From Egicoccus sp. AB-alg2 (lineage in GTDB: Bacteria; Actinomycetota; Nitriliruptoria; Nitriliruptorales; Nitriliruptoraceae): DNA of 64,000 bases. This document shows, piece by piece, positions 5,983 to 10,061 of the stretch (within the stretch, counting starts at the first letter, position 1; each line of letters starts with the position of its first letter). The translations under genes were made by a program, and so were the position numbers. The DNA is taken from positions 186,001 to 250,000 of the forward strand of contig NZ_JBGUAX010000007.1 of assembly GCF_041821065.1 (NCBI RefSeq), written 5' to 3'. Under the pieces are notes generated by a model. That model had not been told where the DNA came from. It was given only the letters and a program-made list of their open reading frames with translations, and made no database searches.

Positions 5983-7347
5983 TCAGGCCGCCCACCGGCG
6001 GCGGACCCAGCCGTTGCTGGTCTCCACGGTGGCGGCCTCGCGCTGGTCGAGGATCAATCGGGCTGCGTGGTCGGCCCGCAGGTAGTTCCAGATCCAGCTC
6101 ACGAGGACCCCGACCCGGTTCTTGAAGCCGACCAGCTGCAGCAGGTGCAGCCCCAGCCAGGCCAGCCACGCCAGGAAGCCGCGCAGGCGGATGCCGCCCG
6201 GCAGCTCGGCGACCGCCGCCGCCCGTCCGATGGTCGCCATGGCGCCCTTGTCGCGGTAGACGAACCCGCGCGCCGGTGCCCGGTCGAGAACGACCTTCGC
6301 CACGTGGCCGGCCTGCTGCATCGCCACGGGCGCGACCTGCGGCAGCAGCCCGCCCTCTGCAGCCGGGAAGGCCGCCAGGTCGCCGATGGCGTACACGTCA
6401 CGCAACCCCACGACCCGCAGGTGCTGGTCGACGGCCAGGCGGCGGCCGGCCGTCACCGGCACGCCGAGGTGGGCCGCCAGCGGCGAGGCGGCGACGCCGG
6501 CAGCCCACACCAGCGTCCGCGTCGGCAGTACCTCGCCGTCGGTGAGCTGCACGTGGTCCGCGTCCGCCCGCGCCACGCCGATGCCCAGTCGCACGTCGAC
6601 GCCGCGGCGGGTGAGCTGGTCGAGGGCGTGTGCGCTGGACCGGTCGGCGAAGGTGCCCAGGAGCCGCTCGCGCGGTTCGAGCAGAACGATCCGGACCTGC
6701 TCGAGATCCAGCTCCGGGTGGTCGCGCCGCACGACGAGATCGACCAGCTCGGCCAGCGCCCCGGCCAGCTCCACCCCGGTCGGGCCCCCGCCGGCCACGA
6801 CGAAGGTCAGACCGCCGTCGGTCGCGTGGACGGGATCCGCCGAGGCCGCCTCGAACATCGCCAGCACGTGGTTGCGCAACGTCGTCGCGTCGGCCAGCGA
6901 CTTCAACGCGTAACCGTGCTCCGCCACGCCCGGCACGCCGAAGTCCTCCGTGATCGCGCCGGCGGCAAGGACCAGCCGGTCGTAGGCCAGGCTGCCGCCG
7001 TCGGCGAGGTGTACGCGGTGCGTCGTCGGGTCGATGTCGACCACCTCGCCGACCCGGATCTCGACGCCACGACGGCGCAGCGTGGCCCGCAACGAGATAC
7101 CGATGTCCTGCGGCTGCAACCCGGCCGTGGCGACCTGGTAGAGCAGCGGCTGGAAGGTGTGGTGGTTGCGACGGTCGACCAGGGTCACGCGCACGCCAGC
7201 GCGTCGAGCCCGGCGTGTCGACAGTTCCCGGGCCACGCGCAGCCCGCCGAAGCCACCACCGACGACCACGACGTGCAGCGCCGCCTGCCGTGGTTGCGCA
7301 CGTGTGGGTGCGGTGCCCTGGGCAGACGTGCGGTGGCGGTCACCCAT
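5983..7347 (-). CDS. ndh: Type II NADH dehydrogenase (NDH-2)-like flavoprotein
   Basis: This 454-residue pyridine nucleotide-disulfide oxidoreductase has an FAD-binding GGGFGG at about 31-36, a NAD-binding GGGPTG near 183, and the second FAD motif YAIGDLA near 315. The C-terminus is hydrophobic (LRGFLAWLAWLGLHLLQLVG), consistent with NDH-2 membrane attachment. The enzyme oxidises NADH and reduces quinone without pumping protons. Two Rex-type operators lie 93-135 bases upstream, implying repression when NADH is low and induction when NADH is high. NarX-like or other NAD(P)H:quinone oxidoreductases of the same fold are the main alternative. Confidence 0.88.
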   Translation of the reverse strand: MGDRHRTSAQGTAPTRAQPRQAALHVVVVGGGFGGLRVARELSTRRARRAGVRVTLVDRRNHHTFQPLLYQVATAGLQPQDIGISLRATLRRRGVEIRVGEVVDIDPTTHRVHLADGGSLAYDRLVLAAGAITEDFGVPGVAEHGYALKSLADATTLRNHVLAMFEAASADPVHATDGGLTFVVAGGGPTGVELAGALAELVDLVVRRDHPELDLEQVRIVLLEPRERLLGTFADRSSAHALDQLTRRGVDVRLGIGVARADADHVQLTDGEVLPTRTLVWAAGVAASPLAAHLGVPVTAGRRLAVDQHLRVVGLRDVYAIGDLAAFPAAEGGLLPQVAPVAMQQAGHVAKVVLDRAPARGFVYRDKGAMATIGRAAAVAELPGGIRLRGFLAWLAWLGLHLLQLVGFKNRVGVLVSWIWNYLRADHAARLILDQREAATVETSNGWVRRRWAA

Positions 7348-7439: not shown

Positions 7440-7457
7440 TCGTGAAGAATTTCACAA
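7440..7457. promoter_or_regulatory. Rex-type operator 1 (proximal to ndh)
   Basis: TCGTGAA-GAAT-TTCACAA matches the 18-bp Rex consensus TTGTGAA-N4-TTCACAA with one mismatch. Rex binds it in the NAD+ form and releases with NADH. It lies about 93 bp upstream of the ndh start, exactly 25 bp centre-to-centre from a second copy. Confidence 0.8.
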
Positions 7458-7464
7458 GGGGGCT

Positions 7465-7482
7465 TTGTGAAGGTTTTCACGA
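7465..7482. promoter_or_regulatory. Rex-type operator 2
   Basis: TTGTGAA-GGTT-TTCACGA is again one mismatch from the Rex consensus, with the mismatch in the mirror position to that of operator 1. It sits between ndh (leftward) and the PH-domain gene (rightward) and could influence either, although ndh is the established kind of Rex target. Confidence 0.8.
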
Positions 7483-7573
7483 GCCGTCCGTCCTGTCAAG
7501 GGTCCGGCCGGCCGACGGGCAGTACGGTGCGCTCGTCGACGCGAATCCCAACTGTCGCCGCCCGGAGTTGCGC

Positions 7574-8326
7574 GTGAGCCACCCCGCCGAGGACCCGACG
7601 AGCCGGCCGCCTCCGCCGCCGGCCGCTGGCGTGCCGCCGCGGACCGCGCCCCCCGTACCGGCATCCGACGCTCCGGCATCCGACGTTCCGGGGCACGACG
7701 CTGCGGGGCCCGGGGCACCGCCGCCAGCCACGCCGGCGCCCGCCAGGCCCGCGCCCGGTGTGGCGCGGCCCGCTGCGCCGGCCACCGCCGCGCCGCAGCG
7801 CGGCACCGTCCCGCCCTCCACGCCCCGGTTGCCGCTCGACGACCGCGAGCGGCGGCTGGACCCGCGCATCGTGCAGGTGTGGCGCGTCGGCAACGGGATC
7901 GGGGCCCTGTTCGTCCTGGGGCCCCCGGCCGTCTTCGCGCCGCTGCTGTTCGGCCGCTGGGGCTACGTAATCACCGTGCTCGCCGCGGCCCTCGCCCTGG
8001 CGTGGATCGTCGCCTGGCCCCGCGCGCAGTACCGTCGCTGGCGATGGCAGCTGACCGACCTGGCGCTCGAGCTGCGCCACGGGGTGGTCGTGCGCCGCCA
8101 CCAGGCGGTCCCCTACTTCCGCATCCAGCAGATCGACGTCGCCCAGGGCCCGGTCGACCGGCTGCTCGGCCTGGCCACGCTGCAGGTCACGACCGCGTCG
8201 GCGTCCGGCAGTGCGGCGCTGCCCGGCATCCCGGCCGACGACGCGCCGGGCATCCGGGTGGAGCTGCTGGCCCGCGCCGCCGAGGCCGTCGGCGAGCACG
8301 AGGGTGAGCTCCGCGATGCCGTCTGA
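7574..8326 (+). CDS. PH domain-containing membrane protein, YdbS-like
   Basis: This 250-residue protein starts at GTG 7574 after a CCGGAG ribosome site. The first 80 or so residues are Pro/Ala-rich and probably disordered. Two adjacent hydrophobic segments follow (about 105-150), then one bacterial PH domain (bPH_2/DUF304) containing WQLTDLALELRHGVVVRRH and the typical RIQQIDVAQGPVDRLLGLATLQV. The organisation is that of YdbS, which pairs with YdbT in Firmicutes. The next gene overlaps it by 11 bases and is the YdbT-like partner. The function of the pair is not well defined. Confidence 0.8.
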   Translation: MSHPAEDPTSRPPPPPAAGVPPRTAPPVPASDAPASDVPGHDAAGPGAPPPATPAPARPAPGVARPAAPATAAPQRGTVPPSTPRLPLDDRERRLDPRIVQVWRVGNGIGALFVLGPPAVFAPLLFGRWGYVITVLAAALALAWIVAWPRAQYRRWRWQLTDLALELRHGVVVRRHQAVPYFRIQQIDVAQGPVDRLLGLATLQVTTASASGSAALPGIPADDAPGIRVELLARAAEAVGEHEGELRDAV

Positions 8327-10061
8327 CCCACGGCCCACGACGCCACCACCGCCGGTACCACCCCCACCGGTACCACCGCCAGGAGGGGCTGGCCCCCGGG
8401 GAGCGATGCCCTCGACCCCGCCGCGCGCCCCGACGCCGTCCGGCCCCACGCGCGGGGCCTGGAGCGGCCCGATGCCCGGCCCGGCCGCCCGGGCTGGCGC
8501 GGCCGGCCGGTGGGCCCGCCCCCGACGACTGCATCCCGCCTCCGTCGTGCTCGGCGTCAACCTGCGCCAACTGCTGCAGGCGGTCGTGTTCCCGCTGTTC
8601 GCCACCCTGGCGGCCGGCGGCATCTTCGCGATCGCGATCATCGGCACGGCCGTGCTGGTCGGCCTGGTGATGCGGATCCTGGCGTGGCAGCGCTTCACGT
8701 TCTCGTTCGACGGCGAGGTCCTGCGCGTCGAGGAGGGCGTCGTCAGCCGGAGCGCCCGGTCCCTGGACGTCGCCCGCGTGCAGCAGGTGGAGATCGATCG
8801 CGGCCCCGTGCAGCGCCTGCTCGGCCTCGCCGCCCTGCGCGTGGAGACGGCCGGCAGCTCCTCCGAGGTGGAGGTCGACCTGCGCGTCGTCACGGAGGAC
8901 GAGGCCGTCGCCCTGCGCCAGGCGATCCGCGAGGGCAAGGCACGCAAGACCGGTTCCGCACCGGCCGACGGCGGTGACCCCGCAGGCGCCGAGGCGGCCG
9001 CCGAACCGGCCGAGCCCGCGAGGCAGGAGCTGCTGGCCGTGCCGCTGGCGCACGTCGTCCTCGCCGCGGTGACCGGCGGGCGGCTGCTGGTGTTCCCGGC
9101 CGTCATCGTCGGTGCCCTGCAGTTCGCCGGGGACGTGTTCGGGCAGTTCCTGGACGACGCGCTGGAGCGGCTGGTGGAGAACGGCACCCAGGGGATGCCC
9201 GGCTGGCGTGACCTGACGCTCCAGGCCGGCCTGCTGGTGGGCGCCGGCGTGCTGCTGCTGTCGGTGGTCGCGGCCGTCGTCGTCGGCATCCTCCAGGACG
9301 CCAACTACCGCGTCAGCCGCGTCGGCGACGACCTGCACGTCCGCCGCGGCCTGCTGTCCACCCGCGAGTCCGTGGTCCCGATCCGCCGCGTCCAGCTCGT
9401 CGAGATCCAGCGCAACTGGCTGCGCCGGCTGCTCGGCTACGGCAACGTCCGGGTCCATTCCGCCGGCGGGTCCGGCGACGCCGACCGGCGCGTGACGGTG
9501 CCGCTGCTCCCGGACGGCCGGGTCGACGACTTCCTGCGCGAGGTGCTCCCCGGCGTGCCGGGGGTCCCGGCGCTGCGTGCCCACCCGAAGCAGGCGCGTC
9601 GCCGGGTGGTGTTCCGCTGGCTGCGTCCGCCACTGGTGCTGGCAGCCGTGGTCTGGGCCTGGAACCCGATCCCGTTCACCCCCTTCGACCTGCCCGACGC
9701 GGCCCGCTACGGCGTGGTGGCCCTGCTGCTGCTCGCGGTGCTGCTGGGGATCGTCGAGCACCGCAACCTGGGCCACGCCCTCACCGAGCGCATCGTCGTG
9801 TCCCGCCGTGGGGCCCTGTCCATCACCACGGGCGTCGCGCCGGTCGTGAAGGTGCAGGCCGCCAGCCGAAGCGCGAACTGGTTCCAGCGGCGGCTCGGAC
9901 TCACCACGGTCGATGCCCATGTCGCGGGACCCGGCGGCGACCTCGAAGTGCTCGACGCCGGCGAGGCGGACGGCGAGCGGCTCTACCGCGCCCTGGTCCG
10001 CCACGCCGCCGATCCCGATCCGGTCGGCCCCAGCGTCGAGGAGGTGCCGGCGGGAGCGTGA
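8316..10061 (+). CDS. Multi-PH-domain membrane protein, YdbT-like
   Basis: This 581-residue protein starts at ATG 8316, overlapping the previous stop, with GAGGGTGAG just upstream. A Pro-rich N-terminus precedes three repeats of the same module: a paired hydrophobic hairpin followed by a bPH_2 domain. The PH cores show VARVQQVEIDRGPVQRLLGL, IRRVQLVEIQRNWLRRLLGY and VVKVQAASRSANWFQRRLGL. This is the YdbT architecture. Translational overlap suggests a membrane complex with the single-PH neighbour. The biochemical role is unknown. Confidence 0.8.
   Translation: MPSDPRPTTPPPPVPPPPVPPPGGAGPRGAMPSTPPRAPTPSGPTRGAWSGPMPGPAARAGAAGRWARPRRLHPASVVLGVNLRQLLQAVVFPLFATLAAGGIFAIAIIGTAVLVGLVMRILAWQRFTFSFDGEVLRVEEGVVSRSARSLDVARVQQVEIDRGPVQRLLGLAALRVETAGSSSEVEVDLRVVTEDEAVALRQAIREGKARKTGSAPADGGDPAGAEAAAEPAEPARQELLAVPLAHVVLAAVTGGRLLVFPAVIVGALQFAGDVFGQFLDDALERLVENGTQGMPGWRDLTLQAGLLVGAGVLLLSVVAAVVVGILQDANYRVSRVGDDLHVRRGLLSTRESVVPIRRVQLVEIQRNWLRRLLGYGNVRVHSAGGSGDADRRVTVPLLPDGRVDDFLREVLPGVPGVPALRAHPKQARRRVVFRWLRPPLVLAAVVWAWNPIPFTPFDLPDAARYGVVALLLLAVLLGIVEHRNLGHALTERIVVSRRGALSITTGVAPVVKVQAASRSANWFQRRLGLTTVDAHVAGPGGDLEVLDAGEADGERLYRALVRHAADPDPVGPSVEEVPAGA

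What the first reader, a model, noticed from the sequence alone, without database searches (positions are those of the whole stretch)
7440..7482. Tandem Rex operators controlling ndh
Two 18-bp sites, each one mismatch from TTGTGAA-N4-TTCACAA with mismatches in mirror positions, are spaced exactly 25 bp centre to centre. Rex control of ndh is known in other Gram-positive bacteria. This predicts NADH/NAD+-dependent control here and possibly of the divergent PH-domain pair.
Basis: partly seen in the sequence, partly recalled or inferred. Interest (0 to 1): 0.58.

Follow-up and report, generated by a model that had tools for sequence, protein, structure and literature searches.

The report
Paired Rex operators before ndh
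Two side-by-side binding sites for the NADH-sensing repressor Rex sit at the promoter of a respiratory NADH dehydrogenase gene in an actinobacterium; this is a well-known kind of control, seen here in a little-studied lineage.

Summary
Two 18-bp sites at 7440-7457 and 7465-7482 are present as described: 25 bp apart centre to centre, one mismatch each to TTGTGAA-N4-TTCACAA, chance expectation 0.09 sites at up to 3 mismatches. The genome encodes one Rex. Only four places in the 4.84-Mb genome match with up to 2 mismatches: these two, one before the GGR-family reductase gene that heads nuoA-D, and one before a whiB gene. Rex binding upstream of ndh2, nuo and wblE is shown in Streptomyces avermitilis (PMC5355995). 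Tandem sites recur before ndh in 5 genomes (this one included) and a single site in a sixth; spacing is 22, 23 or 25 bp, so 25 bp is not fixed. A TTGACA box 11 bp upstream is conserved in a same-genus genome, placing the -10 inside one site and the start between the two (inference). A Crp reading is disfavoured: the A7/T12 pair that marks Rex is kept in 23 of 24 nuo-side cores. Control of the divergent PH-domain pair is unsupported. Ordinary new member of the known Rex regulon, with mildly notable doubled operators. No binding was measured.

The parts
7440..7457 (.). Rex operator A (TCGTGAAGAATTTCACAA), predicted just downstream of the ndh transcription start
   Evidence: 1 mismatch; a counterpart in G003
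7465..7482 (.). Rex operator B (TTGTGAAGGTTTTCACGA), predicted to overlap the ndh -10 region
   Evidence: 1 mismatch; a counterpart in G003
7494..7499 (-). candidate -35 box TTGACA of the ndh promoter, 11 bp before operator B
   Evidence: same box and same 11-bp distance in G003; the strict promoter scan found nothing
7470..7476 (-). inferred -10 position of ndh (AAACCT or AACCTT, 17-18 bp after TTGACA), inside operator B
   Evidence: inference from spacing sequence; not found
5983..7347 (-). ndh, type II NADH dehydrogenase (Pyr_redox_2 + NDH2_C), 454 aa
7523..7528 (+). candidate -10 box TACGGT of the divergent PH-domain operon
   Evidence: lies in a 12-bp block identical in G003; inference
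7574..8326 (+). bacterial PH-domain (bPH_2) gene 1, GTG start chosen by a nearby GGAG
8316..10061 (+). bacterial PH-domain (bPH_2) gene 2, three bPH_2 stretches

Best explanation
The two palindromes are operators for the genome's single Rex repressor at the promoter of ndh (type II NADH dehydrogenase). While NAD+ dominates, Rex dimers sit on operator B (over the predicted -10) and operator A (just past the predicted start) and block transcription by occlusion. When NADH rises, NADH-bound Rex lets go, ndh is made and NADH is re-oxidised. Shown by sequence: the sites, the rex gene, conservation, and matching sites before nuo and whiB. Inferred from Rex biology: binding, the NADH response, the promoter position, and any cooperation between the two dimers.
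For: Sites far above chance (genome-wide 13 versus 2 control). One Rex gene, protein matching solved Rex chains. The only four genome places with up to 2 mismatches lie before ndh (two), GGR-nuoABCD and whiB, three target types shown for S. avermitilis Rex (PMC5355995). Sites upstream of 6 of 25 NDH-2 genes, 5 of them tandem, all six in one 11-row subclade. Of 30 GGR-nuo loci examined, 24 have an exact core, 23 of the 24 with A7 and T12. In 41 genomes, 52 sites with up to 1 mismatch against 2 control; rex in 38 of 41.
Against: 19 of 25 NDH-2 genes in relatives have no site, some with 60-65% identity to this one. No site within 400 bp upstream of rex, before atp, and no cydA, so the regulon is smaller than in Streptomyces. 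The promoter position is inferred; the strict scan found none. G015 has a perfect-core nuo-side site although no rex was found in it. No binding data.
Confidence: 0.92

Rival explanations
1. The sites belong to a Crp/GlxR-type regulator, whose consensus TGTGA-N6-TCACA (recalled) is contained in the Rex consensus.
For: The core matches; the genome has HTH_Crp_2 proteins, one with a recognition helix that looks Crp-like to me from recall (L064).
Against: A7 and T12, which a Crp site does not need, are kept in 9 of 11 exact ndh cores and 23 of 24 GGR-nuo cores. Crp-type sites show little excess in the genome: 12 versus 6 control, 3 of the 12 being the Rex-like sites. No PF00325 match.
Confidence: 0.05
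2. Only one of the two sites is a working Rex operator; the other is a by-product or relic.
For: G005 has a single perfect site before ndh; the second sites in G036 and G003 have 2 mismatches. Spacing varies.
Against: Both sites are equally good in this window, and two are kept in 5 of the 6 site-bearing genes across two families (f1 and f5).
Confidence: 0.2
3. The operators also, or mainly, control the divergent PH-domain pair.
For: They lie about midway in the 226-bp divergent region; G003 keeps both the arrangement and the sites.
Against: The sites lie upstream of the likely -35 of the PH promoter (block; inference). G005, G028, G030 and G036 have ndh sites without PH genes detected in the fetched flanks, and G010 has the PH genes next to ndh without comparable sites.
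Confidence: 0.12

Closest known systems
Rex regulon of Streptomyces avermitilis (ndh2, nuoA1-N1, wblE, atp, cyd, rex-hem; PMC5355995)
   Same: Same 18-bp consensus; Rex binding shown upstream of ndh2, nuo and wblE; operators that overlap promoter elements or lie past the start (passages read)
   Different: Two full sites at ndh here; the nuo-side site lies before a GGR-family gene; no cydA found, no site seen at atp or rex in this genome
Rex control of yjlC-ndh in Bacillus subtilis (named in PMC5355995)
   Same: Rex represses ndh, an NADH feedback loop
   Different: Other phylum and gene context. Multiple Rex sites at B. subtilis cyd are recalled only; my search for them found no paper

Membership tests
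Rex operator (ROP) | Match to TTGTGAA-N4-TTCACAA beyond chance | tested here: met
   two sites, 1 mismatch each, expected 0.09 at up to 3 mismatches
Rex operator (ROP) | rex gene in the same genome | tested here: met
Rex operator (ROP) | Position in the promoter region of a redox gene, conserved in relatives | tested here: met
   only 6 of 25 NDH-2 genes in the class
Rex operator (ROP) | Binding by Rex, released by NADH | not testable with these tools
   needs a gel shift or footprint
Rex regulon of Streptomyces type | Sites at ndh, nuo and a whiB/wblE-type gene | tested here: met
Rex regulon of Streptomyces type | Sites at rex itself, atp and cyd | tested here: not met
   no cydA; rex, 400 bp; 1500 bp upstream of the atpB match
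Crp/GlxR operator | Genome-wide excess of TGTGA-N6-TCACA sites without A7/T12 | tested here: not met
   12 versus 6 control, 3 of the 12 being the Rex-like sites
Crp/GlxR operator | A Crp-family regulator in the genome | tested here: inconclusive
   PF00325 none; PF13545 15 matches, 7 over the cut-off

The most novel reading that the evidence does not exclude
Two full Rex operators at ndh, kept as a pair while their spacing drifts (22-25 bp), make a steeper or two-step NADH switch than the single nuo-side site, so that this lineage shifts between proton-pumping complex I and non-pumping NDH-2 at different NADH levels.
Probability: 0.2. Interest if true: 0.4.

Novelty: new member of a known kind. 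Interest (0 to 1): 0.2.

Why it matters
It extends a Streptomyces-like Rex regulon (ndh, nuo, whiB) to a poorly studied actinobacterial lineage and gives a compact test case: one Rex and four best sites, with doubled operators on the non-pumping NADH dehydrogenase and a single one on the complex I side. Otherwise it confirms known biology.

Tried and rejected
Crp/GlxR reading: tested with pattern and family searches and the inner A7/T12 positions; disfavoured, not excluded. Fixed 25-bp phasing: rejected, relatives have 22 and 23 bp. Mirror mismatches as meaningful: rejected, G003 differs. Further targets in the own genome: nine 3-mismatch sites, of which 7 fall inside genes by a crude gene caller and 2 do not; against 2 control matches I treat them as unproven. 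cyd: no cydA family hit. atp: no site in the 1500 bp upstream of the atpB match, although some relatives have sites before an atpI-like gene. Literature: searches for tandem or paired Rex sites, for three Rex sites at cyd and for Nitriliruptor with Rex or redox-sensing found nothing on point in the held library. Structure prediction was not run; sequence matches to solved Rex chains were enough.

Full report
Observation. They are the only matches with up to 3 mismatches in the window (expected 0.09; 0 of 100 shuffles had two). In the whole 4.84-Mb genome there are 13 sites with up to 3 mismatches against 2 for the reversed control pattern; only three sites have up to 1 mismatch, and these two are among them.

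Genes. The sites lie about midway in a 226-bp divergent region between ndh (minus strand; Pyr_redox_2 and NDH2_C) and a pair of bacterial PH-domain genes (plus strand; bPH_2). The genome has a second NDH-2 (G000:C3) with no such site within 350 bp upstream.

The regulator. One gene matches the Rex DNA-binding family PF06971. The 217-aa protein has eight matching solved sequences, seven named Rex and one named AT-rich DNA-binding protein, the best at 1.6e-48. In the printed alignments the helix-turn-helix stretch (VRKDLS, GTRGVGY) and the nucleotide-binding stretch are shared.

The regulon. The third 1-mismatch site in the genome is 166 bp upstream of a FAD reductase with a weak GGR_cat match, followed by genes matching nuoA, nuoB, nuoC and nuoD families. 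The only 2-mismatch site (G000:C4:55826) is about 180 bp upstream of a whiB match at G000:C4:55398-55649. In Streptomyces avermitilis, Rex binds upstream of ndh2, nuoA1-N1 and wblE, uses the same consensus, and NADH reduces its DNA binding (PMC5355995, passages seen; its authors name M. tuberculosis whiB1 as the wblE homologue). So the four best sites in this genome fall on three known kinds of Rex target. A cydA family member was not found, and no site was seen in the 1500 bp upstream of the atpB match or within 400 bp upstream of rex.

Conservation. In 41 genomes of the same class (own included), the pattern with up to 1 mismatch gave 52 sites in 24 genomes against 2 for the control, and rex is found in 38 of 41 (not in G015, G023, G026). 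Of 25 NDH-2 genes from 21 genomes, 6 have sites upstream: tandem in G000, G003, G030, G028 and G036 (second site weaker), single in G005; the other 19 have none. Centre spacings in those five are 25, 23, 22, 23 and 22 bp, so the exact 25 bp is not a rule. The site-bearing genes all fall in one subclade of 11 rows; the label needs at least three changes, so one gain with losses is possible (24 of 25 rows used, G034 left out for an in-frame stop). For GGR-nuo I examined 30 of the 40 matches (39 genomes): 24 have an exact core; G009 and G036 have one with a single core mismatch; G021, G014 and G032 have none; G023 had only 5 bp upstream.

Rex or Crp. GTGA-N6-TCAC is also the heart of a Crp site (recalled). 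What the Rex consensus adds is A at position 7 and T at 12. Both are present in 9 of 11 exact ndh cores (one miss is a far-upstream core in G030, the other the second site of G028) and in 23 of 24 GGR-nuo cores. The genome shows little excess of Crp-type sites (12 versus 6, three of the 12 being the Rex-like ones). It does have HTH_Crp_2 proteins, one with a Crp-like helix by recall, so the rival is unlikely rather than excluded.

Mechanism. In G003 the block CCCTTGACA and the 11-bp distance from TTGACA to the first operator are the same. With a 17-18 bp spacer the -10 would lie inside operator B (7476-7470), the start near 7464 between the operators, and operator A just downstream. That is an occlusion layout, like S. 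avermitilis operators that overlap promoter elements or lie past the start. This is inference: the strict promoter scan found nothing and no start is mapped. For the PH pair, a conserved 12-bp block with TACGGT (7523-7528) suggests a start near 7535, leaving both operators upstream of its -35. PH genes next to ndh were detected only in G003 and G010 besides the own genome (only the fetched flanks of 26 loci were examined), and G010 has just a degenerate site. Direct Rex control of the PH pair is therefore unsupported.

Verdict. It is a new member of the known Rex operator kind, mildly unusual in being doubled at ndh. The lineage is probably class Nitriliruptoria: that is my guess from genome sizes and one Nitriliruptorales record among the named relatives; the genome itself is unnamed.

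Noticed in passing
upstream of whiB in L139-L168 (own genome: L154, site G000:C4:55826-55843): The whiB-side sites are lopsided in a conserved way: of 30 loci examined (of 44 matches), 10 have an exact core, all 10 without A7 but with an intact TTCAC half, and 14 more have GAGAA-N4-TTCACAA; 6 have neither. This looks like a deliberately weakened Rex site or one shared with another regulator.
   Followed up: partly
L074, L079, L084, L088, L090, L097: In six loci from relatives a Rex-like site with one mismatch lies before a short gene of one cluster; two of the six were scanned and match ATPase_gene1, the start of an atp operon by its family. The own genome shows no such site before atpB.
   Followed up: partly
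L078:4317-5171, L080:4044-5582, L093:2165-3592, L068:4178-6052: Other genes next to 1-mismatch Rex-like sites in relatives: a NuoB-like (Oxidored_q6) protein, a PEPCK, a dihydrolipoamide-dehydrogenase-like protein and a biotin carboxylase.
   Followed up: no
L113 (G015): A perfect-core nuo-side site in a genome where no rex was found (88% complete): an assembly gap or a relic.
   Followed up: no
L023 (G000:C3:509692-510939): A second, 54%-identical NDH-2 in the same genome has no Rex-like site within 350 bp upstream, so the two copies are probably controlled differently.
   Followed up: partly
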